25,975 nucleotides of DNA from a virus. The notes below the pieces were generated by a model. It searched no databases, was not told where the DNA came from, and saw only the letters and a list, made by a program, of their open reading frames with translations. Shown here one piece after another: positions 4 to 21,808 of this stretch (position 1 is the stretch's first letter; the number at the start of each line of letters is the position of its first letter). A program made the translations under genes and the position numbers. The stretch covers positions 1-25,975 of IMG/VR virus record IMGVR_UViG_3300025141_000643; one strand, 5' to 3'.

Positions 4-1140
4 ATGGATAAAAGTACATTCTCTAAAATAGATGAATTTATTGGAACAGGTAATTATATGCTTAATGCATGTTTGAGTGGTTCATTATTTGGAGGTGTTC
101 CTAATAATAGATCAGTTTGCTTTGCTGGACCTTCTGGAACTGGTAAAACATTCTTATTATTAAATGTTGTAAGAGAAGCACAAGCAAAAGGTTATCAAAT
201 TATATTTTATGATTCAGAAACTGCTGTAGATATTGATATGATAGAAAAATTTGGAATAGATCCAAAGAAGTTTAGATATGAACCATGTAATACAGTTCAA
301 GAATTTAGAACCTCTATAACTAATCTTGTTAAGATCATAAGTGAACAAAAAAGAAAAGGTTTAGATGTTCCAAAAGTTATGGTTTGCTTAGATTCTTTAG
401 GTAATCTTGCTTCACAAAAAGAAATTGATGATGCAATGAGTGGAAGCGATAAAGCCGATATGACGAGAGCAAAAACTATCAAATCATTATTTAGAATACT
501 CGGAACTCAATTAGCTGAATGTAAAATTCCATTTGTATTCACTAATCATACCTATTCCGGCCAATCTTTTATCCCTATTGTTACGGCTGGTGGTGGTACT
601 GGTCCTGAATATTTCGCATCTATAATACTATTTCTCAGGAAAGCTCAATTAAAAGAAGGACAAGAAAAAGCTGGTATTGTGGTGACTGCGACTCCTAATA
701 AAAATAGATTTGCTAAACCAACTCCAGTAAAATTCATAATTCATTTTGATAAAGGAATGAATCAATATATTGGATTAGAAAAATATATTTCATGGGAAAC
801 TTGTGGAATTGAAAAGGGAGAAATTCATAATCAAAAAGGTTATGATAAATGGAAAGATGGAGATAAAAAAGGATATGATTTAGAAAAGTATTCATGGAAA
901 GATACCGAAGATAATGATTGGTATTTTTGGCCAAAACCTACTGCTCGAAAATTTGTTTCAAAAGATCTTTGCCAAACTATAGACGTTCAACAATTATTTT
1001 CAAATATAGGATTACCACTTCATCTTCTTAAACAAATGGATGAGATGGTAATAAAACCAGATTTTTCTTATGGTGTAAATGAAAATGTTGTTGATGAATT
1101 AGAATCAATAATCCAATCAAATGATGAAGACAAAGAATAA
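4..1140 (+). CDS. uvsX: UvsX-like RecA-family recombinase
   Basis: Strand-exchange ATPase of T4-type replication and repair: it coats ssDNA (with UvsY and gp32 in T4) and drives homologous pairing for recombination-dependent replication. Seen: Walker A GPSGTGKT at about residues 42-49, Walker B-type VMVCLDSLGN near 125-134, then the UvsX-typical stretch DMTRAKTIKSLFRI and the L2-like GGGTGP loop. T4 UvsX has the same DSLGNLAS and MTRAKTxKSLFRI blocks. The C-terminus is acidic (ends DEDKE), as in T4. The listed ATG at position 4 gives 378 residues, but the frame is open to the left edge. The T4 protein has roughly 20 more N-terminal residues before the block matching SKIDEF, so the true start may lie outside the window. 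First gene of a tight replication operon; its 3' end overlaps the next start by 20 bases. Confidence 0.93.
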   Translation: MDKSTFSKIDEFIGTGNYMLNACLSGSLFGGVPNNRSVCFAGPSGTGKTFLLLNVVREAQAKGYQIIFYDSETAVDIDMIEKFGIDPKKFRYEPCNTVQEFRTSITNLVKIISEQKRKGLDVPKVMVCLDSLGNLASQKEIDDAMSGSDKADMTRAKTIKSLFRILGTQLAECKIPFVFTNHTYSGQSFIPIVTAGGGTGPEYFASIILFLRKAQLKEGQEKAGIVVTATPNKNRFAKPTPVKFIIHFDKGMNQYIGLEKYISWETCGIEKGEIHNQKGYDKWKDGDKKGYDLEKYSWKDTEDNDWYFWPKPTARKFVSKDLCQTIDVQQLFSNIGLPLHLLKQMDEMVIKPDFSYGVNENVVDELESIIQSNDEDKE

Positions 1141-7035: not shown

Positions 7036-8394
7036 ATGGCTAAATTAAAAAATTTCGATGAGTTTTGTAACGAAAGCTTAATCTTAAGTAGCGAATACAA
7101 TTATTATGGGCCAGGTTCTTTGGTTCCTATGATTAAACAATTAGTTAGAGAAGGTAAAGATTCTTCTATCATTCGGTCATATTTAACATCCCTTGGAGTT
7201 GAGGCTTGGAGGATAGATAAAGCAATGTCTGAATTTGAAGTTGCATTTGGTGGTGAAAAGAGAGTTAATGAATCAATTAATGAAGCAAAAGCTACATTTG
7301 AAGAAACCGCTAATAAATTCTTAAGTGAATTAAATGAAGAAGATCAACCTAAAAAAGCAACATTTGAAGATGCTGCTAATGCATTTTTATTAGATCTTCC
7401 TGGTTCTGATGAGGTTACTGAAAAACTAAATAAAGAAACTCTTCAAGTTGAAGAAGGTGATGGTGAAGATATTGATGATATGATCGATGATCTTGAAGAT
7501 GGAGATGAGGATGAATACCAAGGTCCTGATGATGATGCTCCAAAAGATGGAGATGAAGAGAAAATAAAAGATAGCGATAATGCATCTCCAAAAGATAAAT
7601 TAGAACAAGCTGCTAAAGAACTTGCTAAAGATTCTAAGAAATTAGAAAAGATTAAAAAGATATTAGGTGAAGCTGATTCAATTACAGTTGATGATGATGG
7701 TGAAGAGGTTAAAGATAAGGAAGGTATTGAAGATGCTAAAACTGGTGATGAGATCGAAGTTGAAGAAACATTTGGAGGAGATATTCCAAAAGATGGAGCT
7801 AAATCACATAGTGATCATCAATCAAAGCAAAAGAAATTAACTGAAGCACTTAACGAAGAAAATCTAAAAGATTATCTCTTAAAAGATATAAAACCCGACA
7901 AGGAATTCTACACGACAGTAGAAGATATAGCCAAAGGATGGAAAGTTGATATAAATGAATGCTATCTATTTTCTAGTGAGGCAAGTACTCCTGCAGAATT
8001 TGGCCAAGTAACAATACTGTATGATAAAGTTGCAAGTGGCCGCGGAAAATGGGAGAAGAATGATTATTGGAATTGGAGTGATAAGCTTTTAGTTGGACAA
8101 GATCTAACAGGAGAGCAGTATTTATTTCATCCAAAATACAAATCAGATCTAACGAAAATAGTTAAGACATGGCCGATAAATGAATCCGTTAATGATACTT
8201 GGAAACCATCACCAGGATTATTCATGCAACCTGCTACTATGATTGCTAAACATATTATGGAAGGTGCTGAATCTTTAGATCAAGCAATTGCAAGATTTGA
8301 TAATCATGCGGAAAAGGTTAAACCACTTTTAGGAAATGCTGATAGACAAAATTTAGAAATGGTTAAACCTTTGCTAGAAAAAAAGCTAGGATAA
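7036..8394 (+). CDS. acidic, probable head-core/virion protein with capsid-targeting-like N-terminus
   Basis: A 452-residue protein I cannot name. The N-terminus MAKLKNFDEFCNE-S resembles the T4 capsid-targeting peptide (MKTYQEFIAE-) that gp21 removes. Further (I/V/L)NE-(S/A) tetrads occur at RVNES (76-80), SINEA (80-84), ALNEE (~272-276) and PINES (~380-384). Residues 86-99 and 108-121 form an imperfect internal repeat (KATFEETANKFLSEL / KATFEDAANAFLLDL). Residues ~135-250 are extremely Asp/Glu-rich and probably disordered. Residues ~275-380 look globular and Trp/Tyr-rich (WNWSDKLLV, GEQYLFHPKY). A Lys/Leu-rich helical end follows. Scaffold-like composition and protease motifs suggest a prohead core or internal head protein. 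A tail-associated role is possible given the gp15-like neighbour. Confidence 0.7.
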   Translation: MAKLKNFDEFCNESLILSSEYNYYGPGSLVPMIKQLVREGKDSSIIRSYLTSLGVEAWRIDKAMSEFEVAFGGEKRVNESINEAKATFEETANKFLSELNEEDQPKKATFEDAANAFLLDLPGSDEVTEKLNKETLQVEEGDGEDIDDMIDDLEDGDEDEYQGPDDDAPKDGDEEKIKDSDNASPKDKLEQAAKELAKDSKKLEKIKKILGEADSITVDDDGEEVKDKEGIEDAKTGDEIEVEETFGGDIPKDGAKSHSDHQSKQKKLTEALNEENLKDYLLKDIKPDKEFYTTVEDIAKGWKVDINECYLFSSEASTPAEFGQVTILYDKVASGRGKWEKNDYWNWSDKLLVGQDLTGEQYLFHPKYKSDLTKIVKTWPINESVNDTWKPSPGLFMQPATMIAKHIMEGAESLDQAIARFDNHAEKVKPLLGNADRQNLEMVKPLLEKKLG

Positions 8395-10046: not shown

Positions 10047-10406
10047 ATGGCAAAAGTATATTTAAGAAATAAAGATTTACTTGCTGAGATTATCAAATCT
10101 AAAGAGCAAGATAAGCTGACCCCAGAAGCAGTCCAAATGTTAATTATGCTTTCAGAAAGGGCAATTAGAAAATTAAAATATAGAAATCCAGAAGATAGGA
10201 ATGATTGTTTATCTTTTGCTCAATTAGATCTATTCAAATATTGGGATAGATTTAATCCTGAAAAATCTACAAATGCATTTGCATATTTTACTCAAATTGC
10301 TAAAAAGGGATATGCAAAAGGATGGAATAAATTATATCCAAAAAAATATTCAGGTACTATTCGTATCTCAGGATCAAGTGATGATGGTGGTATCTATTCT
10401 ATATGA
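10047..10406 (+). CDS. 55: gp55-like late-transcription sigma factor (short form)
   Basis: T4 gp55 is the divergent sigma-70-family protein that directs host RNA polymerase to late promoters. The match is in the N-terminal block VYLRNKDLLAEIIKSK (T4 YVNNKELLQAIIDWK) and in the region-2-like core at about 55-96 (LDLFKYWDRFNPEKSTNAFAYFTQIAKKGYAKGWNK), whose FxPxKSxNAFAYFTQI pattern parallels T4 FDETKYKNPHAYITQA. At 119 residues it is much shorter than T4 gp55 (185). It ends GSSDDGGIYSI, without an obvious copy of the T4 C-terminal sliding-clamp-binding motif SLDFLYE. It heads a three-gene unit with gp4, and its stop overlaps the next start (ATGA). Confidence 0.8.
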   Translation: MAKVYLRNKDLLAEIIKSKEQDKLTPEAVQMLIMLSERAIRKLKYRNPEDRNDCLSFAQLDLFKYWDRFNPEKSTNAFAYFTQIAKKGYAKGWNKLYPKKYSGTIRISGSSDDGGIYSI

Positions 10407-10879
10407 ACATTAAAAATAATAAACCAAAGAAGAAGTCTGGTTTTAGTCAAGGCTATTTCCCATTAAATGAATGTAAAAAATATCATGGCAAAGGCCCTAT
10501 TATTTACAGATCATCATGGGAAAGGAAATTTTGTTTATATTGTGAAGCTAATCCAGAAGTCATTAGATGGGCATCTGAACCAGTTAAAATAAAATACATC
10601 AATTCTTTAGATGGACGGGAACATTCTTATTTCCCGGATTATTACATTCAATTAAAAGGAAACACCGAATATTTAATTGAAGTTAAACCTAAAGCTCAAT
10701 TAAAAAAACCAAATCCTCCGAAAAGAAAAACAACCAAAGGTGTCAAAAACTATAAATATGCATATGAAATGTACGTAACAAATATGTGCAAAATTAAATA
10801 TGCTGAAGAATATTGCAATAAACGAGGTTGGCAATTCAAAATAGTAACAGAAGACTTTTTTAAAACAATTAAACTATAA
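10403..10879 (+). CDS. 4: gp4-like head completion protein (nuclease-like fold)
   Basis: Homologue of T4 gp4 (gp50/65), which finishes the DNA-filled head before tail joining. It has the TnsA/PD-(D/E)xK-like layout. The basic N-terminus GYFPLNECKKYHGKGPIIYRSSWERKF contains the SSWExKF signature with Glu40. RWASEPVKIKY follows, then the central Asp79 in YFPDYY and Glu93-x-Lys95 in YLIEVKPK. The 158-residue length fits T4 gp4 (150). All residues of a metal-dependent nuclease site are present, although whether gp4 cuts DNA is not settled knowledge. The ATGA overlap with gp55 and TAATG overlap with the next gene indicate coupled translation. Confidence 0.85.
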   Translation: MNIKNNKPKKKSGFSQGYFPLNECKKYHGKGPIIYRSSWERKFCLYCEANPEVIRWASEPVKIKYINSLDGREHSYFPDYYIQLKGNTEYLIEVKPKAQLKKPNPPKRKTTKGVKNYKYAYEMYVTNMCKIKYAEEYCNKRGWQFKIVTEDFFKTIKL

Positions 10880-11553
10880 TGGCACAAATAATCGGAGAAG
10901 CATTTGCAGAATTACCTGAATTAAGTCAAATTGGTAATGGAGATTTTGAGAATTATGTTAAAGAATGGGAGAAGAATTATGGTGGTGCTGGTCAAGCAGC
11001 TAAATATGCAAGAGATTGGTTTGATTCAACATTAGCAGATAAAGATTCGACTTACATTCAACCTTTTAGCCAAAGTGAATTAACATGGGGTAAAATGTAT
11101 CATTTTGAATATGATCCAGTTACAAGAGACAAATTATCCTATTTTGATAACTCACCAATGGTAATTTCTTTAGGTAAACATCAAAATGGAAAAACAGAAT
11201 TAGGTATGAATTTAAACTTTTTACCTAAAGCTGTTCGTTATTGGATGGTAGGCAGAGTATTTCAAGTATATGCTGGAGATATTAAAAATGCATCAAAAGG
11301 GAAAAAATGGAGAAGAGCTTTTGAACAAGAGGAAGTGCAAATAGAATATGATATGATGAAGAAATGGCTTTGGAAATATGGATTTGATTTTTGTATCAGA
11401 CAATATTATATGAATAAAACACGAGATTTAGCTGTTATTTGTTATGAAGATTGGATAAGAGCCGTAATGATTGATTGGAATAATTTTGATCAAGTTCAAG
11501 AAAATCAAGTTAAAGCATTGTATGATGACTATCTTAAAAAGGTGGGCAAATGA
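10879..11553 (+). CDS. T4-like virion protein, possible gp2-type DNA-end protector
   Basis: A 224-residue protein. Residues ~70-125 carry a pattern I associate with a conserved T4-like family: YHFEYDPVTRDKLSYFDNSPMV followed by GMNLNFLPKAVRYWMV (general form YDPK..D.LPYYD..PLV ... GLN.HYLP..R). From memory this family is annotated in marine T4-like phages as the DNA end protector gp2. In T4, genes 2, 4 and 53 are adjacent, and here the gene directly follows gp4, which supports a gp2 or gp53 slot. The assignment is uncertain; a baseplate wedge role (gp53) is the alternative. The C-terminal half is helical and basic (KKWLWKYGFDF, ALYDDYLKKVGK). The start overlaps the gp4 stop (TAATG). Confidence 0.55.
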   Translation: MAQIIGEAFAELPELSQIGNGDFENYVKEWEKNYGGAGQAAKYARDWFDSTLADKDSTYIQPFSQSELTWGKMYHFEYDPVTRDKLSYFDNSPMVISLGKHQNGKTELGMNLNFLPKAVRYWMVGRVFQVYAGDIKNASKGKKWRRAFEQEEVQIEYDMMKKWLWKYGFDFCIRQYYMNKTRDLAVICYEDWIRAVMIDWNNFDQVQENQVKALYDDYLKKVGK

Positions 11554-11557
11554 AAAA

Positions 11558-11572
11558 GAATATATAAACTAA
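11558..11572 (+). promoter_or_regulatory. candidate late promoter before portal gene
   Basis: The sequence gaatatataaactaa lies 19-33 bases before the portal ATG at 11591, right after the preceding stop. It shares the ATATAAA core with the other late elements in this window. Confidence 0.45.
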
Positions 11573-11590
11573 TAATAAAAAAATCGTAAA

Positions 11591-13177
11591 ATGGCAGGAT
11601 TTGTTGAAAGGGGAGAAGGCGGAAATAGTGATAGACGTTTCGTCGCTTCTAATGCATTAAAACAATTGAGCTCATTCGGAATGAAGTACGATGATATGGT
11701 ACTTCGTAATTCACAAGCCGTTGGTATTGTGGAAGATCAATTTGGTTGGACTTATGACCCTAGAGGGTTAGTTGGTGGTGATTATGATGATTATGCTTTG
11801 TTTGCAAACTTAGCACTATCTGATATAGCACTTAAAAAATCAATATCTATATTTGACAAATCATATCCTAAGAAAAGAGAAGAGCTTAGGAGATTTGCTG
11901 TACAAGATGAAATAGAAGAAATTTTAGATACTTTATGTGATGAATGTATAGTATATGATGATAAAAACTATTTTGCAGATCCTTTATTATTTGATGATGA
12001 TTTATTGGCTGATGATAAAGTAGATGAGATTAGAGGAGCTATATCAATCAATTTTAAAAGAATATATCAATACTTTGGTTTTAACAATGATATAACTGCA
12101 TGGTCATACTTTAGAAAATGGCTAGTGGATGGTTATCTTGCCTTTGAGATTATATATGATAATGACCAAAGAAATATTATAGGATTTAAGGAATTAGATC
12201 CAATTACATTAGAACCTGGAATTGATGACCAAGGAAAAAGAGTTTGGAAACAATTTAAAGATATACCAGCTAAAGCAAGAGTACTTTATGATTCTCAAAT
12301 CATTTATCTTTCATATGCAAACTTAAATTCACCAACCAGAATTTCTTATACAGAAAGATTAATACGTTCATTTAACCTTCTAAGAATTATGGAACATTCT
12401 AGAATTATTTGGGCAGTAGTTAATTCTTCATTCAAAACTAAATTTATTATACCGGTTGGAGGTAAGTCAAAAACAAGAGCAAAACAATCACTTGGTGTTC
12501 TTATGCAAAACTATCGAGAACAAGTTGATTTTGATTATGATTCAGGTGAATTATCAACTAATGGCCGTCCAATGATGCCATTCAATAAAGAGTATTGGTT
12601 ACCGGAAGGTGATGCTGGTTCTCCACAAATCGAAACAATCGGTGGTGATGGACCTGATCTTTCAGATACAGACTCATTAAATTACTTTAAAGAAAACTTA
12701 AGACGTGTATCTAAAATACCAATGAATAGATTCGATGTTGAAAATCCTCCATCATGGGAATTAAATGCTGAAGGAATGACAAGAGATGAAATCAAATTTG
12801 GTAGATTTATTAATAGACTTAGATCCGTATTCCAAGAAATAGTGGTTAAACCATTATGGATCCAAATGACTTTAGATTATCCAGATCTTATGAATGATGA
12901 TTCATTCAAAGCTCAAGTAGGTGTTAAATTTAACAAATATAATATCTTTGAGGAGATGAAAGAAATGGAATTATTACAAAAACGAATTGACTTTGTTACC
13001 GCAATGAAAGATGGTCTTGTAGACTATGATCCTGATGGTAATGAGATCAAATATTTCTCTTCTGAATGGCTAATTCGCCGATTCATGGATATGAGTGAAG
13101 CTGAAATTAAAGCTAATCAACGAATGAAGGACAAGGAACAAGAGAAACTTGATGCAATGGCAGAAGAGGAGGAATAA
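11591..13177 (+). CDS. 20: gp20-like portal protein
   Basis: Dodecameric portal vertex protein: initiator of prohead assembly, docking site for terminase, and DNA channel. The 528-residue length matches T4 gp20 (524). Recognisable blocks are YFRKWLVDGYLAFEII (173-188), the stem/clip segment ISYTERLIRSFNLLRIMEHSRIIWAV with VGGKSKTRAKQSLGVLMQNYREQVDFDYDSGEL (T4 DVGNMPTRKAAEYM... VYDATTGKI), and EYWLPEGDAGSPQIETIGG (T4 [20 protein letters not shown]). Next comes DTDSLNYFKENLRRVSKIPMNRF (T4 [22 protein letters not shown]), then the C-terminal crown helices. The extreme C-terminus is KLDAMAEEEE, a run of four glutamates. It begins the head module and is followed by the protease and capsid genes, as in T4. 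Confidence 0.92.
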   Translation: MAGFVERGEGGNSDRRFVASNALKQLSSFGMKYDDMVLRNSQAVGIVEDQFGWTYDPRGLVGGDYDDYALFANLALSDIALKKSISIFDKSYPKKREELRRFAVQDEIEEILDTLCDECIVYDDKNYFADPLLFDDDLLADDKVDEIRGAISINFKRIYQYFGFNNDITAWSYFRKWLVDGYLAFEIIYDNDQRNIIGFKELDPITLEPGIDDQGKRVWKQFKDIPAKARVLYDSQIIYLSYANLNSPTRISYTERLIRSFNLLRIMEHSRIIWAVVNSSFKTKFIIPVGGKSKTRAKQSLGVLMQNYREQVDFDYDSGELSTNGRPMMPFNKEYWLPEGDAGSPQIETIGGDGPDLSDTDSLNYFKENLRRVSKIPMNRFDVENPPSWELNAEGMTRDEIKFGRFINRLRSVFQEIVVKPLWIQMTLDYPDLMNDDSFKAQVGVKFNKYNIFEEMKEMELLQKRIDFVTAMKDGLVDYDPDGNEIKYFSSEWLIRRFMDMSEAEIKANQRMKDKEQEKLDAMAEEEE

Positions 13178-13197
13178 AAATTCAATAGAAAGACAAA

Positions 13198-13213
13198 GAT
13201 ATATATTAAAATA
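13198..13213 (+). promoter_or_regulatory. candidate late promoter before protease-scaffold gene
   Basis: The sequence gatatatattaaaata lies 20-35 bases before the ATG at 13233 and differs by little from the gatatataattaaa elements at 6026 and 8427. Confidence 0.5.
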
Positions 13214-13232
13214 GCAAAATAATCTATTATCC

Positions 13233-14984
13233 ATGGAAAACAAAAATTTGTTAGTACTCGAAAGATCATCTTGTGTGTTAGAGGCAAAAGGCACAGGGGA
13301 TGATAAATACGTTTTAGAAGGTACTTTCTCAGAAATCGGAAAAAAGAATAAGAATAATCGTATTTATGATGAGAAAGAACTTATTCCTCATATCGATGCC
13401 TTAAGAGAAAAAATTAAAGAAGGCAAGCTTTTAGGTGAATTAGACCACCCTAAACAATTTGATATATCATTAAAAAATGTTTCTCATGTTATTGAGGAAA
13501 TTGAATATGATAAAGCAAATAAAATTGTCAAAGGAAAAATTCGTTTACTAGATACTGAAGCTGGAAAACAAGCCCAAGCATTAGTTGATGGTGGTATTCC
13601 TATTCATATTTCTAGCAGAGCTGCTGGGGTTGTAGAAAACAATGGTCATGTAAAAATTAAGAAACTTTTTACTTATGATTTAGTTGCAGATCCAGGCTTT
13701 GAAAATGCTGAATTAAAACGTGTCAATGAAGCATTGGGATTCTCTAATGACGGTGATATACAAATTTACGAACTGAATGGATATATAGAAGAGAACAATA
13801 AAGAAATTCAAAAAGAATTAGAAAATACAATGGAAAAAAATACTTCTGAAAACCCAATCAATGAAGGAACTGGGAATTTTGTTACCGTAGAAGATTTTAA
13901 CGAATATTCAAAAATCGTAAAAGAATCAATCGAAAGAATCACTGGTGATGTTGATAAAATGAACGAGACTTCTCAAGTCGGTGACTTAGTAAAATATTCT
14001 GAGTCTATCGCGAAACGTGTTAATCAAATATCTGGTTATGTAGAACATGTTGCAGAAAACGTAGATAATCTTATTTCTCATAATGATTACATCATTGAGA
14101 ATCTTGATAAGGTTAAAGATTATGCTGAATATGTTGGTTTAAAAACCGATCAAAATATAGAATATTCAAAACACATAGCAGAGAATGTTAATTCGAGAAC
14201 AGAATACCAAGATTATGTCAATGAACATGTTGATAAGGTAATTGATTATCAAAATTACTTGGTAGAAGGTATTGATGCCGTTGCAAATTATACAGAATAT
14301 ATTAAAGAAAACCTAGAAAATCTAGGTAATTATACAGATTACGTTGCTACTTCAATAAATGAAAGTGGTATTACAAAAGAAAATCCTGTTGAAAATGTTA
14401 ATGAAGCTGAAACTCCAAATGAAACAGATGTTGTTTTAACGGAGACAGAAACATTTAAAACAGACTTAAATGATAAAATTCAAGCGTTAGTCGAATCAGC
14501 TAAGAAGCAAAAAGTTGAAGAAACCGCTGCAAATACACATTTCTTACATTTCTTAAATGAAGATCGTAGAGAAGAATTCAAATCATTTGATGATGAGTCT
14601 AAAGCGAAAGTTATTAGGGCTTATGAATCAAATAATTGGTTCGGATCTACTGAGGTTTCAGGAATATGGGAAAGTGTATTCACACCAGTCGAAAAAACAA
14701 TCAACTGGCTAGATAATATGCCTACTAAATTCGCAAACTCATGGAATTCATTAAATGAATCTCAAAAGAATGCTATTAAAGGTCAGGCAACTATGAGAAA
14801 TCTTGATACACAATACAAGATCGATCATTTCTGGTCAACTAGAGAGTTAAGGGCTACTAACCCATCTGAACAAATTAATGAGTCTCCTAAGATGGTGGTT
14901 GAAAATGAATCACCTGAATATGAAACTTCATCTGTTTACATGGAAACTGTTGCAGAGGAACTTAAAAAGCGCTTTAATAAGTAG
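13233..14984 (+). CDS. 21: gp21-like prohead protease fused to coiled-coil scaffold-like region
   Basis: Residues 1-170 are the maturation serine protease (T4 gp21 / herpes assemblin-like fold): GTFSEIGKKNKNNRIYDEKEL, catalytic His72 in GELDHP, Ser127/128 in HISSRAAG, and LVADPGF at 150-156. The protein then continues for ~410 residues, whereas T4 gp21 is 212 aa in all. Residues 255-380 are nine head-to-tail 14-residue units (YxxYVxExVDxVxx, two heptads each). A Thr/Glu-rich linker follows, then a helical C-terminal domain (~430-540, with Trp-rich AYESNNWFGSTEVSGIW). T4 encodes the gp22 scaffold separately between 21 and 23; no such gene exists here, so this region probably supplies it. (I/V/L)NE-(G/S/A) sites at 209-212, 375-377, 389-391, 507-509 and 548-551 would let the protease free and destroy the core. 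Confidence 0.85.
   Translation: MENKNLLVLERSSCVLEAKGTGDDKYVLEGTFSEIGKKNKNNRIYDEKELIPHIDALREKIKEGKLLGELDHPKQFDISLKNVSHVIEEIEYDKANKIVKGKIRLLDTEAGKQAQALVDGGIPIHISSRAAGVVENNGHVKIKKLFTYDLVADPGFENAELKRVNEALGFSNDGDIQIYELNGYIEENNKEIQKELENTMEKNTSENPINEGTGNFVTVEDFNEYSKIVKESIERITGDVDKMNETSQVGDLVKYSESIAKRVNQISGYVEHVAENVDNLISHNDYIIENLDKVKDYAEYVGLKTDQNIEYSKHIAENVNSRTEYQDYVNEHVDKVIDYQNYLVEGIDAVANYTEYIKENLENLGNYTDYVATSINESGITKENPVENVNEAETPNETDVVLTETETFKTDLNDKIQALVESAKKQKVEETAANTHFLHFLNEDRREEFKSFDDESKAKVIRAYESNNWFGSTEVSGIWESVFTPVEKTINWLDNMPTKFANSWNSLNESQKNAIKGQATMRNLDTQYKIDHFWSTRELRATNPSEQINESPKMVVENESPEYETSSVYMETVAEELKKRFNK
13830..14984 (+). other. possible internal translation start for a separate scaffold protein
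   Basis: Met200 of the protease-scaffold ORF begins MEKNTSENPINE-G. This looks like the short N-terminal peptides ending in INE that open other head-associated proteins here (MNLINE, MKFFKYYTINE). The protease domain ends at about residue 170, so a product from this ATG would be a 384-residue scaffold similar in concept to gp22. The upstream bases are A-rich, like ordinary starts in this genome. No independent proof; nested protease/scaffold genes are known in other phages (for example lambda C/Nu3). Confidence 0.35.
13995..14372 (+). repeat. nine tandem 14-residue coiled-coil repeats
   Basis: Codons 255-380 encode nine consecutive 14-residue units, each starting with Tyr (or His at unit 3), with a second aromatic at position 4 and usually E-N-V/L-D at positions 7-10. 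Examples are YVEHVAENVDNLIS, YQDYVNEHVDKVID and YTEYIKENLENLGN. A related unit, YSKIVKESIERITG, occurs earlier at 225-238. The DNA copies have diverged, so this is an old protein-level repeat. Confidence 0.8.
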
Positions 14985-14994
14985 AAATTTCTAC
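14981..14994. repeat. 14-bp perfect palindrome at 3' end of protease-scaffold gene
   Basis: GTAGAAATTTCTAC equals its own reverse complement and covers the stop codon of the preceding gene (TAG, 14982-14984). It lies 35 bases before the capsid-protein ATG. It could be a protein-binding site or simply an AT-rich coincidence. With no loop and no T tract it is a poor terminator. Confidence 0.5.
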
Positions 14995-15008
14995 TAAATA
15001 ACCAAACC
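14992..15008 (+). promoter_or_regulatory. weak late-promoter-like sequence before capsid gene
   Basis: The sequence tactaaataaccaaacc, 21-37 bases before the MCP start at 15029, has ACTAAATA against the T4 late TATAAATA. It is weaker than the other elements. The capsid gene should be the most highly expressed late gene, so either this variant is functional or transcription enters from 13198. Confidence 0.3.
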
Positions 15009-15028
15009 CTAAAAATAATTAGATAATC

Positions 15029-16690
15029 ATGAATTTAATTAATGAATCTGAAATCTACGGAAAGTGGTCTCCTATTATTGAGAGTACTACTGGAATAGAG
15101 GACAGAAACAAACTCGATTGGATGTCTAAGTATTGTCATAACCATGAGCTTTATGAAAATAACGTTTATGCTCAAGTTGGTTCTGTAAATGGTATGGGTG
15201 CTACAAGGTTTCCTGGTGATCCAGGATTACAAACTACCTTTGGTGCTCAAACTACTGGTTCTGGTGATAAGCCTTACACTTTGCTTCCACTTGCTATGCA
15301 AGTTGCTGCTCAGACTGTAGGTTTAGACCTAGTACCTGTTGTACCTATGAATGGACCAATGGGTGTATTGACATACCTTGACTTCGTCTATGGTGGTGGT
15401 AAAATACCAACACTTGGACAAACTGCTGCATTTAATGCAACAGGCGCAAACAGAGCAGGTGCTCCAGATAACCAACCTTTAATAATCAAAGATGCAACTA
15501 CTTTTGCAGGTACAACTGCATTTGTTGAAGGTACTCAATATACGGTTTCTACTGGTGCTACTGTTACTTATGCTGGTGTATCTAGAATAGATGGAAATGA
15601 TATTTTCCGTATCGATTCTACTGGTGCATCTACCGTTGCTGAAGTATTTACTGCTGGTGCACTTATCAGTACAACTGCTGGATCTACTTATACTCTTACA
15701 GGAGCTCCGGCTTTAGTGAAAGCACTAGAAGATCACATAATAGGATTCTCATCTAACGACTGGACTGGTTCAACTGAACCAATGTCAAGGTTACAAGGTG
15801 AAGCTACTATGGATAATGTAATGAACCTTAGTTTATTCAACAAATCCGTTGAAGCACAAACTTATCAAGTTGCTGCTGCAGTAACTAGAGAGCAAGTTCA
15901 AGATCTGAAGCAATTCGGAATTGATGCTGTTGCTCAAGTTGAGTCTGTACTTATCAACGAATTAACTCAAGATATTAACAAAAATATCCTTGAGAGAATT
16001 AGAGCTAATGGATTTACAAATGCTGCTCAGATTTCTATCACACAAGGAGTTAATTTCTTCTTGTTAGTTGGAACTACTACTGGTCTAACCTATGATGCTT
16101 ATGCAACTGCGGCTGGTGGAATTAATTCTAACGGTGCAGATAGTACTCAACAGTTTGGAACTGGTGGAGCTGCTGGAAACATCAATATTGCTGCTTCTGA
16201 ACTTAATTCAGCTGCTGAAAACTTGCATACTCGTCAGAGAAAAATCATGTCTAAAATGCTAGCAATGGCGAACATGATTGCTATCCGAGGAAGACGTGGT
16301 CCTGCTACATTCGTTGTTACTAACGGACAAGTTGGAACTGCACTGCAAGATTGTGCTGGATTCGTTCCTGCTCCAATGATGAATACTATTAATCAACAAA
16401 CTGGTTCTTTGTACCCTATCGGTACTTTAGCTGGATTAGTTGTTTATGTAGATCCATTAATGGCGTGGAGTGATAACCGTTTCTCAGTTGGTAGAAAAGG
16501 TGATGGAAATTCTCCAGGACTTGTATTTATGCCATACTTAATGGCTGAATCAGTTCAAACTATTGCTGAAGGTACTATGGCGCCTAAAATCGCTGTAAAA
16601 TCTAGATATGCATTAGTTGAGGCTGGACATCATCCACAAACTATGTACTTATCAAGTTATGTTTACAATGTAGCTGGTGGATTAGCTTAA
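15029..16690 (+). CDS. 23: gp23-like major capsid protein
   Basis: HK97-fold hexamer-forming shell protein. The 553-residue length is close to T4 gp23 (521). Seen: an N-terminal IYGKWSPIIES block (T4 LLNKWKPLLEG), then LLPLAMQVAAQTVGLDLVPVVPMNGPMGVLTYLDFVYG at 85-122 (T4 VMGMVRRAIPNLIAFDICGVQPMNSPTGQVFALRAVYG). A Ser/Thr/Gly-rich beta insertion occupies about 150-235, where T4 also has its insertion domain. Then come TREQVQDLKQFGIDAVAQVESVLINELTQDINKNILERI at 286-324 and a C-terminal VYVDPLMAW...FSVGRKG...SRYALVEAG. A likely maturation cut is after Glu43 in HELYE-NN, matching the T4 LTE-A cut after Glu65 in position and in the (L/I)-x-E rule. A strong terminator follows the gene. Confidence 0.93.
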   Translation: MNLINESEIYGKWSPIIESTTGIEDRNKLDWMSKYCHNHELYENNVYAQVGSVNGMGATRFPGDPGLQTTFGAQTTGSGDKPYTLLPLAMQVAAQTVGLDLVPVVPMNGPMGVLTYLDFVYGGGKIPTLGQTAAFNATGANRAGAPDNQPLIIKDATTFAGTTAFVEGTQYTVSTGATVTYAGVSRIDGNDIFRIDSTGASTVAEVFTAGALISTTAGSTYTLTGAPALVKALEDHIIGFSSNDWTGSTEPMSRLQGEATMDNVMNLSLFNKSVEAQTYQVAAAVTREQVQDLKQFGIDAVAQVESVLINELTQDINKNILERIRANGFTNAAQISITQGVNFFLLVGTTTGLTYDAYATAAGGINSNGADSTQQFGTGGAAGNINIAASELNSAAENLHTRQRKIMSKMLAMANMIAIRGRRGPATFVVTNGQVGTALQDCAGFVPAPMMNTINQQTGSLYPIGTLAGLVVYVDPLMAWSDNRFSVGRKGDGNSPGLVFMPYLMAESVQTIAEGTMAPKIAVKSRYALVEAGHHPQTMYLSSYVYNVAGGLA

Positions 16691-16715
16691 TCGTTAATTC
16701 TTACATATATTATTC

Positions 16716-16750
16716 AAAAGGTCTTCCATATGGGAGACCTTTTGTTTTTT
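16716..16750 (+). terminator. rho-independent terminator after capsid gene
   Basis: A 12-bp stem AAAAGGTCTTCC / GGGAGACCTTTT (one wobble) around an ATAT loop (16716-16743) is followed by GTTTTTT. It ends the head operon 25 bases after the MCP stop and insulates the accessory operon that follows. Confidence 0.92.
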
Positions 16751-16756
16751 GTCACG

Positions 16757-16773
16757 AATATATAGTAATATAA
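16757..16773 (+). promoter_or_regulatory. candidate late promoter for the accessory operon
   Basis: The sequence gaatatatagtaatata, 20-36 bases before the ATG at 16793, is directly downstream of the capsid terminator. It shares the GAATATATA start with the portal element at 11558. It would drive the K/E-rich protein and the modification enzymes behind it. Confidence 0.45.
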
Positions 16774-16792
16774 CAAATAAAATCTACATTTC

Positions 16793-17671
16793 ATGAAATT
16801 AATGCCTAGAGAAGACTTTAACGAGTTAAATGAAGCTATTATTGGTATGCAACGTAATCAATATACGTTAAAGGACTTAAATGAAGAAGAATTCAAAGAA
16901 TTTATTAAATACCTTTTGCTACTTTCCGGTAGTGGTTCTGCAACTGTTTGTGAATCTTACATTACAAAAACTTTAGCTGATCATAACATCGGAGTTACTA
17001 ATGAACAACTCCAAAATCTTGACTTCAATCAATTATTATTAGAATGTGAGTCTCTTAATGAAGGAGACTTTATGGATGCTGGCTCTCAAGCTTTAACCGT
17101 TGGAGCTGCAACTGGTGTTGCTGCTGTTGGAGGATTAGCTGCATATATCTCATTTTTATTTAAAAAGAAAAAAATAAGAAAAGCTTCAGAGGCAGTACGA
17201 GATGCCAAAATAAAAAAGATAGACATCGAAAAAGAAGTTTATGATGAATTAGAGGCTATGAAACCAATTCTTACTAAAGAGGAAGGTGATGCTAAAATTA
17301 AAGAGATAGAAGAGAAAGCAAAAAAGGATAAAGATGATTTAAAAAACTTTGAAAAAAATAAAAAAGAAGAGGCTGAAAAGGTTGCTGCTGAGGTTGATGT
17401 AGAAAAATTACAATTAAAAGATTTAGGTGCGGATGGTTATGAAAGTTATGAATCACCAAAACCTAAGAAGAATCCAACGCCGACACCAGCTCCAGGAGCT
17501 ACTGGTTCTGCTGGACAAACCGGACAAGCTGGAGGTACTGGACAAACCGAGGTTAAAACTGAAGATATAAATAAAGAGTCTTTACCTGGTGCAGATGAGG
17601 CCACTGTTAAAACATTACAATCTGGAACTCCAGATGAGAAGATAGCTGCTACAGGAAAATTAAAAACTTAA
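16793..17671 (+). CDS. N-terminal part of split K/E-rich protein with one hydrophobic segment
   Basis: Unknown protein of 292 residues, ending at a TAA that exactly marks the junction of a 108-bp tandem duplication. The same frame stays open beyond it to 19867, so this is best read as the N-terminal part of a protein of about 1,024 codons. The start MKLMPREDFNELNE-A resembles a capsid-targeting peptide. Residues ~88-91 (SLNE-G) are another protease-type site just before a hydrophobic segment at 101-123 (LTVGAATGVAAVGGLAAYISFLF), which is followed by KKKKIRK, as in a membrane anchor with a positive cytoplasmic flank. Then come a Lys/Glu coiled coil (~130-205) and a PTPTPAPGATGSAGQTGQAGG linker (228-250). 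Candidate internal head protein or membrane-linked assembly/ejection protein; the function is not known. Confidence 0.7.
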   Translation: MKLMPREDFNELNEAIIGMQRNQYTLKDLNEEEFKEFIKYLLLLSGSGSATVCESYITKTLADHNIGVTNEQLQNLDFNQLLLECESLNEGDFMDAGSQALTVGAATGVAAVGGLAAYISFLFKKKKIRKASEAVRDAKIKKIDIEKEVYDELEAMKPILTKEEGDAKIKEIEEKAKKDKDDLKNFEKNKKEEAEKVAAEVDVEKLQLKDLGADGYESYESPKPKKNPTPTPAPGATGSAGQTGQAGGTGQTEVKTEDINKESLPGADEATVKTLQSGTPDEKIAATGKLKT

Positions 17672-17778
17672 GATATAAGTAAAGAGTCTTTACCTGGTGC
17701 AGATGAGGCCACTGTTAAAACATTACAATCTGGAACTCCAGATGAGAAGATAGCTGCTACAGGAAAATTAAAAACTTC
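17563..17778 (+). repeat. 108-bp in-frame tandem duplication with a nonsense change
   Basis: Copy 1 is 17563-17670 and copy 2 is 17671-17778 (period 108 bases, 36 codons). The copies are identical apart from the first few codons. The GAA at 17561-17563 corresponds to TAA at 17669-17671 (G to T), and AAT in copy 1 corresponds to AGT in copy 2 (A to G). The reading frame is unchanged, so the only coding damage is the TAA. Near-identity implies a recent event, or an assembly or sequencing error at the repeat junction. Confidence 0.92.
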
Positions 17779-18103
17779 TTCAGATGAAAAAATCAAAGAA
17801 CAAACTGCTGCTTTAGAAGCTGCAAAAGCTAAAAAACCACCAGATACAGCTGCTGCTGAAAAGGCTGAGAAAGAAATACAAGCACAACAGAAACAAAAGG
17901 AATTAGCTGAAAAAATCGAAGCAAAAGCAGAGGCAGATAAAGAAAAAGCTGATGAAGCTAAAGCGATTGATGCTCAAATTAAAACGGCTAAAGCTGCATT
18001 TGATAAAGTAAAAGATGGTGATGATGCAGAGGCAGCATACAAAGCAGAGATTAAATTTAAACAAGCTCAACAGAAAAAAGCTAAGTTAGATGGTAATAAT
18101 GAA
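17672..18103 (+). pseudogene. open frame linking the two halves of the split K/E-rich gene
   Basis: These 432 bases have no stop in the frame shared by 16793-17671 and 18104-19867. They encode the same Lys/Ala/Glu-rich coiled-coil style (AAEKAEKEIQAQQKQKELAEKIEAKAEADKEKADEAK). There is no in-frame ATG in this stretch and no promoter or leader before 18104. It is therefore coding sequence orphaned by the TAA at 17669, not an intergenic region. Confidence 0.75.
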
Positions 18104-19867
18104 TTGTTTCAAGGATTAGGTGATGACATCGGAAAAATCATGAAATTGATGAATACACAAAATTCTTCATTAGATCCATTAGCAGAAGCTGATGAGACGA
18201 CAAATAAAGATAAAGATAAAACCAACGATAAAGGCGATAAAGGCGAACCTTTTGGTAAATTAGGTGTAGCTAAAGCAGATTTAAAAGCTATTCAAGGAAA
18301 AGAAGAAGAGGAAGTAAGAAAGGCAAAAGAGAAAATTGCTCAAGAACGTGGGAAAATAGAAAAAAATATTAAAAAACTTAAAGAAAAAAGTTCTGACGAA
18401 AAAACATTAAAGAAAGTTGAGAAATTAGGTAAAGATAAGAAAAAACTTTCGGATGAAATAGAAAAACTTGAAAAGGAAGGTACCGGAAAAGTTAAAACTG
18501 CTAGAGAAAAAGTTGCAAAAATTAAAGGTGATATTGAAACAAAATTAGCTAAAGTTGCAAAATTAGAAGAAGATAATAAGAAAGCTAACGATGAAACTAC
18601 AATAAAAGCAGAAAAAGTTAAACTTCAAAAAGAGATCGATAAAACTGAAGAAAAGATAGAAAAGGTCAAGGAAGATATGCAACCAACCGGAACTGCAAAA
18701 GAAAAAGAAGCAATTGAAGCTAAAGCTACCGCAAAGAAAGAGAAAGTTGGTGAGGATGTTGCTGCAGCTCAAAAGGAACTTGATAGAATGAGTGGTACAT
18801 CTACTGATAAAGAAACCGGTAAAAAGAAATCAGATAGTTTAATTGGCAAAATGACAGGATTTGAAAAAAATTACGTAAAACAAATAGGTGGTGAACATGA
18901 ATTAGAAGTATTACAACATAAAGAAGAGGTAATGAATCAAATCGGTAATGAAAAAGCCGCTGCTGCTGCAGCTGCTGGAACGAAAGGTGCCGAAGCTAGA
19001 GCTGAAGCCGGAGAAGATGGCGTTAAAGCAGAAAAAGATAAAACTGATGCTACTCCAGCAGAAATGGAAGAGGTAGATGATAAAGTTGCTGCAGCTAAAA
19101 AAGAAGAAGAAGCAAGAAAAGCAGAAGAAGCAAAAGAGAAAAAAGAAAAAAAGAAACAAGGATTACAAAAACAAATTGAAGCTTTACAAAAGCAATTAGA
19201 AAAAGTAAAGGCTGATAAGAAAGATTTTACGCCAAAAGATCCAAAAGAAAAGGAACAAAAGGAAAAAGTATTTCAACATAAAATAGATAAAATATCTGAT
19301 AACTTAACTAAAGCTAAAGAGCATTTAGCTGCGGTAGGTGAATCATTTGGCCTTAAATTAGAAGTTGCAATGTTAATAAGTGAATTTAATTCTCTTCTAG
19401 AAGAATATGATCTAGTATTAGAAGATAGAAAAGAATTAAAAGAAGAAGAGAAGGAGAAGAAAAAAGATGATGTAAAACCTGATGATGAAAAATTGGATCT
19501 TCCGGCTGATGCAGAACCTCCAGCTGAAAAGAAAGAAAAGAAGAAAGAAGATAAACATAAATTAATAGATCAAAAAGTTGTTATTATTGATATGATTGGT
19601 TCGGATGAATCTCATCTAGAAGGTGCCAAAGGTGTTATCACACATGCTTGGAAAGAAAATGAAAGAGCACCTGAAGGAGATATGCCTAGAAGATCAGGTG
19701 ATCCGGAATTATTTACGATAACATTTGATAAACCAAAAGATCCAATGTACCCAGAAATTAATTTAACACAAAAGAATTTTAAAGAAGATAAAGAAGATAA
19801 AAAGGATGATGATAAAAGCACTAATGAATCATTTAGAGAGAAATACTATAAAGCAGTAAATGGATAA
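18104..19867 (+). CDS. C-terminal part of split K/E-rich protein
   Basis: A 587-codon open frame if counted from the TTG at 18104. That TTG lies mid-domain and is unlikely to be a genuine start; the frame continues upstream to 17672 (732 codons in all). The first segment (LGDDIGKIMKLMNTQNSSLDPLAEA) looks folded. Residues ~30-400 are long Lys/Glu/Ala coiled coil with an alanine run. Near 410-435 sits an amphipathic helix (KLEVAMLISEFNSLLEEYDLVLE). After another charged linker comes a C-terminal beta domain (~490-560: HKLIDQKVVIIDMIGSDESHLEGAKGVITHAW ... PELFTITFD) that resembles a small SH3/KOW-type barrel, an impression only. The gene overlaps the next by 8 bases. Base composition is A-rich and purine-skewed, as expected from the Lys/Glu content. 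Confidence 0.65.
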   Translation: MFQGLGDDIGKIMKLMNTQNSSLDPLAEADETTNKDKDKTNDKGDKGEPFGKLGVAKADLKAIQGKEEEEVRKAKEKIAQERGKIEKNIKKLKEKSSDEKTLKKVEKLGKDKKKLSDEIEKLEKEGTGKVKTAREKVAKIKGDIETKLAKVAKLEEDNKKANDETTIKAEKVKLQKEIDKTEEKIEKVKEDMQPTGTAKEKEAIEAKATAKKEKVGEDVAAAQKELDRMSGTSTDKETGKKKSDSLIGKMTGFEKNYVKQIGGEHELEVLQHKEEVMNQIGNEKAAAAAAAGTKGAEARAEAGEDGVKAEKDKTDATPAEMEEVDDKVAAAKKEEEARKAEEAKEKKEKKKQGLQKQIEALQKQLEKVKADKKDFTPKDPKEKEQKEKVFQHKIDKISDNLTKAKEHLAAVGESFGLKLEVAMLISEFNSLLEEYDLVLEDRKELKEEEKEKKKDDVKPDDEKLDLPADAEPPAEKKEKKKEDKHKLIDQKVVIIDMIGSDESHLEGAKGVITHAWKENERAPEGDMPRRSGDPELFTITFDKPKDPMYPEINLTQKNFKEDKEDKKDDDKSTNESFREKYYKAVNG

Positions 19868-20345
19868 TAAAATTAAACGAGGTAATGTTGGAAAGAATCC
19901 AACTAGGCATGGAATAATTCTCCAAGGCCTAAAACCTCGATATAGAAATGTTTTAAAAAAATATGAGTTTATTAAAGAAGATTGCAATGATGATGTATTT
20001 GTAAATTTATTATTTAGTTTAGTTGATAGAGAAACACAATCTAAGAACCAAAGTAAATTTTTTATAGACCCAACTGATAATGAAATAAAAGATAGGAAAC
20101 TTTTAATTGATGAAATACGAATTGTACCTTGGATTTGTTCTTTTTGTGAAAAAGACATAAAATCTAAAATGGATAACTTTTCTATAAAGAATTTTGTTTG
20201 TGATAATTGTTATGATATTTATGTAAAAGATGAAAAAAAGATTAGTCAATTAATATTAGAAAATTCAGTAGAATTTACAGAACATTGCAAACGTTTGATA
20301 AATAAAGATAGAAAAACATTCCTTAAATATATTTTAAATAAATGA
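19860..20345 (+). CDS. unknown zinc-ribbon-like protein
   Basis: A 161-residue protein with four cysteines in two CxxC knuckles (C93-C96 in ICSFC, C114-C117 in CDNC) spaced as in a zinc ribbon. The N-terminus is basic (NKIKRGNVGKNPTRHG), which could contact nucleic acid or an acidic protein, and the C-terminal tail is helical and Lys-rich. The start overlaps the preceding stop by 8 bases and the stop overlaps the next start (ATGA). It is thus translationally coupled between the K/E-rich protein and the ATP-grasp enzyme. I do not recognise the family; an adaptor for the neighbouring ligase or a small transcription factor are both possible. Confidence 0.75.
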   Translation: MDNKIKRGNVGKNPTRHGIILQGLKPRYRNVLKKYEFIKEDCNDDVFVNLLFSLVDRETQSKNQSKFFIDPTDNEIKDRKLLIDEIRIVPWICSFCEKDIKSKMDNFSIKNFVCDNCYDIYVKDEKKISQLILENSVEFTEHCKRLINKDRKTFLKYILNK

Positions 20346-21808
20346 AGCATTTTGAAAATTATACATTAATAACCGAGGCACTTTCTTTAAATAAAGTGCA
20401 GGTAATAATCCTTTCCAATTTGGACTCAAATTCAACTACAGTAGATTCAATAAAATCTGAATGTTCAAAAAGAGGAATACCATGTAATGCATTAGATGTT
20501 AAAACTGCATATTTAAAAGAATATGTTAATAAAAGAAATGATATTAAAGTTGGTGATGCTGATACTAAACCAATTGCTATTAATAGATTAAATACTGTTA
20601 TTATTGCAAGACGAGGAATAGTTACGAATTCATATACTCAAAAATTATTACAAGATCTTGAAAAGGCTAATTTCTTTTGTGTAAATGGATTGGAGCCAAC
20701 ATTAACTTGTGAAAATAAAAATACAACAAATACTGTTTTAGAGGCTGCTGGTTTACCAACACCAAAAAACGCAATAGTAAGTGATGCTGATGGTATTGAT
20801 TTAGCATTAAAATCTATTGGTGGAAAATTCCCAATTATTGTTAAACTTCTTTCTGGAGCTCAAGGTATTGGTGTCTCTCAAGTAGATTCATATGAATCAT
20901 TAGTTTCAGTATTACAAACATTATGGAAAGCTAGTGGTAAAAATGAAATTTTATTACAAGAAAAAATATCAGCAACTGGTGATGTTAGAATACAAGTTTT
21001 ATCTAGAAAATTTTATAGCCCGGATGATGAATCTTCGGAAATCGTTGCAGCTATGCAAAGGACTACTGCTAAAAAGGATTTTAGAACAAATTATTCTATT
21101 GGTGGTGGAGTTAAAAAGATCAAATTAACTTCTGAAATGGAAGAAATTGCTAAAGGTGCTGCCAAGGCAGTAGATTGTACATGGTGTGCAGTAGATTTGA
21201 TTGTAGATAAGAAAACTAAAAAACCATACATCTTAGAAGTTAATGCATCTCCAGGAACTAAAGGAATTACTGAAGCAACTGGTATAAATGTTGTTTCAGA
21301 AGTTTTGGATTATATTTTAGATAAAGAAAATTGGACGTATCCTACAATTAATTGTGGTTTCCGTGAATGTTTAACATTACCGGGTATCGCTGAATTAGTA
21401 GTAAAAATGGATACTGGTAATGGTGCAAAAGGTATGGCATTTCAAGGTGAAAATATAGAAGAGGATGGTAAATATCTTAAATGGGAATTAAATGGCCATA
21501 AATTTAGAGACAAAATTATAGGTTATTCTGAACCTATGGATATGAAGGGTAAAAAACATAAAAGACCAATTATAGAAAAAGATATAGTTTTTGCTGGTAA
21601 ATTAGTACCAAAGGTTGCTATATCTGTAACCGATAGAGCTGCTAAAAGTACACCGGTTTTAGCTAATAGAAAATTCATGGATAGATTGGGTATAGTTGTT
21701 AGTCCTTCCAAAGCCTTTAAAGCTACCCAGTTCGATGGGGAATATGATGTATTAAAAGCTCAAGGTGATAAATATGGCGGAATAAATTTTGACACCGAGA
21801 AGAAATAA
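20342..21808 (+). CDS. RimK-like ATP-grasp ligase fused to retropepsin-like domain
   Basis: Two domains are visible. Residues ~18-325 are an ATP-grasp amide ligase of the RimK type: IARRG, FPIIVKLLSGAQGIGV (163-178; RimK PLVVKLVEGTQGIGV), DVRIQVL, AAMQRT, KDFRTNYSIGGG (245-256; RimK GDFRSNLHRGG) and the metal-binding YILEVNASPGTKGI (296-309; RimK VMEVNASPGLEGI). RimK adds glutamates to the C-terminus of ribosomal protein S6. Residues ~340-455 match the RimB-type, retropepsin-like aspartyl protease family (Pfam Zn_protease, often called ATP-dependent zinc protease): LPGIAELVVKMDTGNGAKGMAF with the DTG motif at 357-359, then HKRPIIEKDIVF and VTDRAAKSTPVLANRKFM. The N-terminus MKHFENYTLITE-A resembles the T4 capsid-targeting peptide. 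Likely function: glutamylation of a protein tail with trimming by the fused protease. The substrate is unknown. Confidence 0.85.
   Translation: MKHFENYTLITEALSLNKVQVIILSNLDSNSTTVDSIKSECSKRGIPCNALDVKTAYLKEYVNKRNDIKVGDADTKPIAINRLNTVIIARRGIVTNSYTQKLLQDLEKANFFCVNGLEPTLTCENKNTTNTVLEAAGLPTPKNAIVSDADGIDLALKSIGGKFPIIVKLLSGAQGIGVSQVDSYESLVSVLQTLWKASGKNEILLQEKISATGDVRIQVLSRKFYSPDDESSEIVAAMQRTTAKKDFRTNYSIGGGVKKIKLTSEMEEIAKGAAKAVDCTWCAVDLIVDKKTKKPYILEVNASPGTKGITEATGINVVSEVLDYILDKENWTYPTINCGFRECLTLPGIAELVVKMDTGNGAKGMAFQGENIEEDGKYLKWELNGHKFRDKIIGYSEPMDMKGKKHKRPIIEKDIVFAGKLVPKVAISVTDRAAKSTPVLANRKFMDRLGIVVSPSKAFKATQFDGEYDVLKAQGDKYGGINFDTEKK

What the first reader, a model, noticed from the sequence alone, without database searches (positions are those of the whole stretch)
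17563..17778. Recent 108-bp tandem duplication with a nonsense codon that splits a ~1,024-codon gene
Copies are identical except for two bases in the first few codons of the unit; one turns GAA into TAA at the junction. The frame is otherwise intact over 16793-19867, and there is no plausible start for the downstream half. Options: a true recent mutation, a mixed population (phase-variable length by repeat recombination), or an assembly/sequencing artefact at a repeat.
Basis: seen in the sequence. Interest (0 to 1): 0.6.

Follow-up and report, generated by a model that had tools for sequence, protein, structure and literature searches.

The report
Phage gene broken by recent duplication
A T4-like environmental phage carries a very recent 108-base duplication whose seam happens to spell a stop codon, cutting short a repeat-prone, probably head-associated gene that a near-identical phage sequence carries unduplicated; it is an ordinary kind of mutation, though it should be exactly reversible.

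Summary
The unit is 17562-17669, repeated at 17670-17777 (108 bp, 36 codons). A near-identical virus contig (IMGVR_UViG_3300005595_000032 = L008) carries the one-copy allele. The window equals L008 with L008 7355-7462 doubled, plus two substitutions in 7.6 kb (14578 and 17679).

T17669 is the last base of the unit, and the seam ...AAAACTT|AAGATATA lies one base past a 6-bp microhomology (AAAACT). The duplication is in frame, but its seam is the stop. The only substitution in the second copy (A to G, 17679) is its tenth base.

The gene follows T4-type portal, protease and capsid genes. Fused relatives (782-853 aa) are open. Most homologues carry in-frame tandem repeats there (repeat cover 5.2% against 0.4% elsewhere; 12 of 12 periods divisible by 3). 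One near-identical pair differs in length by a single 15-bp unit. A sister clade encodes the locus as two genes.

Most likely this is a genuine, recent microhomology duplication in a length-variable phage gene, giving a truncated allele that loss of one unit would revert exactly. A chimeric-read artefact is not excluded. Adaptive on/off switching is possible but unsupported.

The parts
17562..17669 (+). First copy of the 108-bp unit; identical to the single copy in L008 (7355-7462)
17670..17777 (+). Second copy; differs from the first only at 17679 (A to G, Asn to Ser)
17663..17668 (+). AAAACT microhomology at the seam (counterpart at 17555-17560); the seam lies one base 3' of it
   Evidence: chance of 6 bp or more within 1 nt of a random breakpoint in this gene is 0.0025
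17669..17671 (+). In-frame TAA created by the seam (T from the unit's end, AA from its start)
16793..17671 (+). Truncated ORF, 292 aa: N-terminal domain with a conserved (L/I)NE motif, a hydrophobic segment and the YISFLFKKKKIRKA motif, then a low-complexity linker
17672..19867 (+). Rest of the original frame: K/E-rich coiled-coil-like region and C-terminal domain (ENERxPEGDMPRR, PKDPMYP), without a start codon near the stop (first TTG 18104, ATG 18140)
15029..16690 (+). Major capsid protein, Gp23 family (context)
   Evidence: PF07068 E=7e-38
13233..14984 (+). Prohead protease, S77/S80 type (context)
11591..13177 (+). T4-type portal protein (context)
   Evidence: PF07230 E=4e-71
16715..16744 (+). 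Terminator-like hairpin with T run between the capsid gene and the split gene
4..1140 (+). UvsX/RecA-like recombinase, relevant to how repeats are made and lost

Best explanation
A T4-like phage recently suffered an in-frame 108-bp tandem duplication in the length-variable linker of a probably head-associated gene that lies just after its capsid gene. Recombination or slipped synthesis at a 6-bp microhomology (AAAACT) joined the end of the unit to its start, one base past the homology, so the seam reads ACT TAA. The product stops after 292 residues, in place of an expected 988 in the one-copy state. One substitution ten bases into the second copy probably arose in the same event. The parent one-copy allele is known as L008. 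Shown: the allele pair, the exact breakpoints, the open frame in fused relatives, and the excess of repeats in this gene. Inferred: the mechanism, the loss or weakening of function, and exact reversion by loss of one unit, because any exchange inside the 98 identical bases deletes the seam.
For: L008 with bases 7355-7462 doubled reproduces window 10208-17834 with only two mismatches, and no other breakpoint does as well. Six-bp microhomology at the seam has a chance of about 0.0025. T4 makes tandem amplifications at microhomologies of typically 6-10 bp and keeps one copy of the microhomology between repeats (PMC9391042); here one AAAACT lies between the copies. A UvsX-like recombinase and a probable gp46/47-like pair are present. 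Fused relatives L003, L005, L006, L007 and L022 are open throughout, and L004 is open to its contig end. Strong tandem repeats cover 5.2% of this gene and 0.4% of flanking sequence across 13 loci, with 12 of 12 periods divisible by 3. L006 and L007 are 99.8% identical and their only indel is one 15-bp unit in this linker.
Against: The two-copy allele is known from one assembled contig only: no other IMG/VR contig holds the seam, although records close to the window may be left out of the search. The extra substitution close to the seam (probability about 0.0015-0.014 by background divergence) would also fit a chimeric or error-bearing read. L008 ends 57 bases past the unit, so the downstream half of the one-copy allele was not seen.
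Confidence: 0.7

Rival explanations
1. Artefact: the population is one-copy, and a chimeric read (template switch at AAAACT during amplification or library preparation), or a rare minor variant, was built into the consensus.
For: Single contig with the seam. The only substitution of the copy lies ten bases from the seam. The one-copy allele is 99.97% identical and comes from another dataset. Repeats at this site seem to interrupt other contigs: L004 ends just after a 15-bp array.
Against: An assembler cannot create the seam k-mers without reads that hold them; mis-counting copies would not give ACTTAAGATATAAG. Homologues show in-frame repeat gain and loss at the same place, so a real duplication is expected here.
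Confidence: 0.22
2. Reversible on/off switch: the 108-bp repeat lets the phage population toggle between a full-length (one-copy) and a truncated (two-copy or more) protein, and selection maintains both.
For: Two alleles exist. Loss of one unit by exchange in the 98 identical bases restores the open frame exactly, which follows. The linker varies in length in relatives.
Against: All other homologues found are open; length changes elsewhere are in frame and make no stop. No second off allele was found. The off state would be hard to regain from one copy, because the seam is not itself at a long repeat.
Confidence: 0.06
3. Gene fission: the stop has made, or is making, two genes, as in the sister clade, where the N-terminal domain and the coiled coil are separate ORFs.
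For: The sister clade encodes the locus as two adjacent ORFs, with ORF A matching the N-domain profile at E=1e-5 to 2e-12; fused and split forms are two clean groups on the capsid tree. None of 22 starts in the window has a Shine-Dalgarno-like motif, so internal starts cannot be dismissed for lacking one.
Against: In the sister clade ORF B starts with its own ATG a few bases after ORF A, and the split lies near residue 170. Here the split is at codon 293 and the next in-frame ATG is 156 codons further on.
Confidence: 0.04
4. The stop is read through or recoded (TAA as sense).
For: The downstream frame is intact; the capsid is related to Lak phages, which as I recall recode TAG.
Against: Most ORFs of the window end in TAA, so TAA is an ordinary stop here; L008 lacks it.
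Confidence: 0.01

Closest known systems
Microhomology-driven tandem duplications and amplifications of phage T4 (PMC9391042 and works cited there)
   Same: T4-type phage with UvsX; tandem copies; short homology at the seam with one copy of it kept between repeats
   Different: Only 108 bp, inside one gene; the seam lies one base past the homology and makes a nonsense codon; one extra substitution nearby; no known selection
In-frame coding tandem repeats (coding VNTR)
   Same: Units of a multiple of three bases in a low-complexity linker; copy number differs between near-identical relatives (L006/L007)
   Different: The window's newest unit carries a stop at its seam, so more than one copy truncates the protein instead of lengthening it
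T4 internal head proteins and prohead core proteins with an N-terminal targeting peptide cut at L/I-X-E (PMC9026906)
   Same: Gene follows the capsid gene; N-terminus has a conserved (L/I)NE at residues 12-14, comparable with MKTYQEFIAEA of T4 IPIII and IPII
   Different: No sequence homology to T4 internal or core proteins was found; has a hydrophobic segment and a long K/E-rich region

Membership tests
Microhomology-mediated tandem duplication of T4 type | Head-to-tail identical copies with a definable parent allele | tested here: met
Microhomology-mediated tandem duplication of T4 type | Short homology (2-10 bp) at the breakpoints, one copy kept between repeats | tested here: met
   AAAACT, 6 bp, offset by one base from the exact breakpoint
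Microhomology-mediated tandem duplication of T4 type | Formed by phage recombination or replication in vivo | not testable with these tools
   UvsX-like recombinase present; no experiment
Phase-variable (contingency) locus | Two alleles that differ in on/off state | tested here: met
   window truncated; L008 open to its end 57 bases past the unit
Phase-variable (contingency) locus | Frequent reversible switching within one population | not testable with these tools
   needs reads or culture
Phase-variable (contingency) locus | Recurrence of on/off alleles in relatives | tested here: not met
   all other homologues found are open
Two-gene architecture of the sister clade | Second ORF with its own start directly after the first | tested here: not met
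   next in-frame ATG is 156 codons on; sister ORF B starts within about 20 bases
T4 internal or prohead core protein | Sequence homology to a known member | tested here: not met
   no convincing PHROG or Pfam match; only weak coiled-coil-like hits
T4 internal or prohead core protein | N-terminal targeting peptide with an L/I-X-E cleavage site | tested here: inconclusive
   motif present and conserved, but a short motif; cleavage not tested

The most novel reading that the evidence does not exclude
A phage head gene with a built-in, exactly reversible off switch: repeat gain truncates the protein through the seam codon, repeat loss restores it, and both states are kept in nature.
Probability: 0.06. 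Interest if true: 0.6.

Novelty: new member of a known kind. Interest (0 to 1): 0.25.

Why it matters
It is a clean natural example, with the parent allele in hand, of how a duplication that keeps the reading frame can still break a gene through the codon formed at its seam. It also marks a fast-changing, repeat-prone and unnamed gene family beside the capsid gene of a group of uncultured T4-like phages, fused in one clade and split in another. The single mutation itself is ordinary.

Tried and rejected
Recoding of TAA: rejected, since most ORFs end in TAA. Frameshift rescue: rejected, the other frames hold 77 and 162 stops. Isolate relatives of the gene: none in the phage collection; none in GTDB genomes. 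Pfam and PHROGs: no family for the gene or its relatives. AlphaFold models of the N-terminal and C-terminal domains: mean pLDDT 54-55, not used. Hairpin-templated origin of the 17679 change (it perfects GTAAAG-AGT-CTTTAC): 11 of 123 possible substitutions make some inverted repeat of that size, so not significant. Downstream half of the one-copy allele: no near-identical contig found. Paper search for the sample number of L008: nothing. Large phages LR756500, Lak-C1, LR745206 and PAU with related capsids show no recognisable version of the gene after the capsid gene.

Full report
What is there. The window is a whole virus record of 25,975 bases. Its genes include a UvsX-like recombinase, a DnaB-like helicase, a phosphoesterase/Rad50-like pair, a T4-type portal, a prohead protease, a Gp23-family capsid protein, a RimK-like ATP-grasp protein and a clamp loader, so it comes from a T4-like phage. 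The closest capsids among named phage records are those of uncultured huge phages and Prevotella Lak phages. The finding lies in the gene right after the capsid gene. Frame 16793-19867 is open except for one TAA at 17669-17671.

The duplication. TRF and a direct comparison confirm two copies of 108 bp. A search for a 24-mer of the unit found one public virus contig, IMGVR_UViG_3300005595_000032 (L008, 7,519 bp), with a single copy. Aligned to the window it has one mismatch in 7,462 bases upstream (14578, Phe/Tyr in the protease gene) and leaves the unit straight into the same downstream flank. When L008 bases 7355-7462 are written twice, window 10208-17834 is reproduced with two mismatches only, at 14578 and 17679; every other placement of the breakpoints is worse. 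So the T of the TAA is inherited from the end of the unit, and the stop is made by the join. The duplication keeps the frame (36 codons), but its seam codon is TAA.

How it arose. The two ends share AAAACT; the join lies one base beyond it. A match of 6 bp or more within one base of a random breakpoint in this gene has probability 0.0025. T4 forms tandem amplifications between short homologies, typically 6-10 bp, and keeps one of the two homologies between repeats (PMC9391042), as seen here. The only substitution in the second copy is its tenth base. From the divergence of the window to L008 and to L037 (7 differences in 5,649 bases), a change within 11 bases of the seam has probability 0.0015-0.014, so it probably belongs to the same event, or to an error-bearing read.

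What the gene is. The N-terminal part has relatives at 39-44% identity in IMG/VR, where the gene is one open frame of 782-853 codons, and a more distant fused relative in L021/L022. The capsid proteins of the first set are 73-76% identical, so this gene evolves fast. It has a conserved N-terminus with (L/I)NE at 12-14, a hydrophobic stretch, FLFKKKKIRKA, a low-complexity linker, a K/E-rich coiled-coil-like region and a conserved C-terminal domain. T4 prohead protease cuts after L/I-X-E, and T4 internal proteins carry a ten-residue targeting peptide of that kind (PMC9026906; T4 IPIII and IPII read here). Within the window such a motif near the N-terminus occurs in the protease, capsid, this gene, the RimK-like gene and a few others, and not in the recognised replication genes. 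My inference, at about even odds, is an internal or core head protein.

Repeats and architecture in relatives. Repeat arrays in the linker or coiled coil occur in most homologues: 15 bp x 7.9 (L004), 42 bp x 2.1 and 12 bp x 4.2 (L005), 15 bp x 4.5 and x 3.6 (L006, L007), and in the sister clade 30, 18, 69, 246, 51, 42 and 33 bp units. L003, L022 and L028 have none above the threshold used. Over 13 loci strong arrays cover 5.2% of this gene and 0.4% of the rest; all 12 periods are multiples of three. L006 and L007 are 99.8% identical, and their only indel is one 15-bp unit in this linker. The window's duplication is thus one more event at a site where such events are common, and the one that happened to make a stop. 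In a sister clade (capsid 61-65% identical) the same place holds two ORFs: A (156-200 aa), matching the N-domain profile at E 1e-5 to 2e-12, and B (371-703 aa) with its own start just after A and, in several members, the shared LGES segment near its end. Fused and split forms are two well-supported groups on the capsid tree. This shows that the two parts can exist as separate polypeptides, but the window lacks a start near the break, so it is not the same arrangement.

Consequence. The window allele should give a 292-residue product with the N-terminal domain and the linker. Restart at TTG 18104 or ATG 18140 cannot be dismissed, because no gene in the window has a Shine-Dalgarno-like motif, but nothing supports it. 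Exchange anywhere in the 98 identical bases would remove the seam and return the L008 state, so the allele is expected to be unstable in a recombination-rich phage. Whether that matters to the phage is unknown.

Limits. No raw reads could be examined. The seam is known from this contig only, and L008 ends 57 bases past the unit, so the intact downstream half was seen only in more distant relatives. Searches may omit records very near the window.

Noticed in passing
20342-21808: RimK-like ATP-grasp gene (PF08443, E=6e-32) starts MKHFENYTLITEA, and sister-clade homologues start like MKNRLAYFNEFVINEA, close to the targeting peptide MKTYQEFIAEA of T4 IPIII/IPII. The homologues in Yersinia phages YerA41 and GN1 are annotated 'structural protein'. 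It may be a packaged, injected enzyme.
   Followed up: partly
L023, L024, L026, L028, L030, L041, L045 (downstream of the capsid gene): In a sister clade the split gene's locus is naturally two ORFs, N-domain and coiled coil, a few bases apart.
   Followed up: yes
L026:8142-8607: A 246-bp, 94% identical in-frame tandem duplication in the homologous ORF B.
   Followed up: partly
whole window: None of 22 gene starts has a Shine-Dalgarno-like motif and upstream regions are A-rich (mean 54% A), as in Bacteroidota; the closest capsids include Prevotella Lak phages. The host may be a Bacteroidota member.
   Followed up: partly
13233-14984: The protease ORF (583 aa) has a long C-terminal part with degenerate repeats (YxxYVxExVDKVIDY); 42-bp repeat arrays occur at about 3.2-4.0 kb in five sister-clade loci, upstream of the capsid gene.
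   Followed up: no
L004:5739-5857: The contig ends just after a 15-bp x 7.9 array at the same linker, and L008 ends 57 bases past the unit; repeats here seem to break assemblies.
   Followed up: no
19860-20345: Small cysteine-containing protein conserved between the split gene and the RimK gene across both clades and in the 462-kb phage LR756500; no Pfam match.
   Followed up: no
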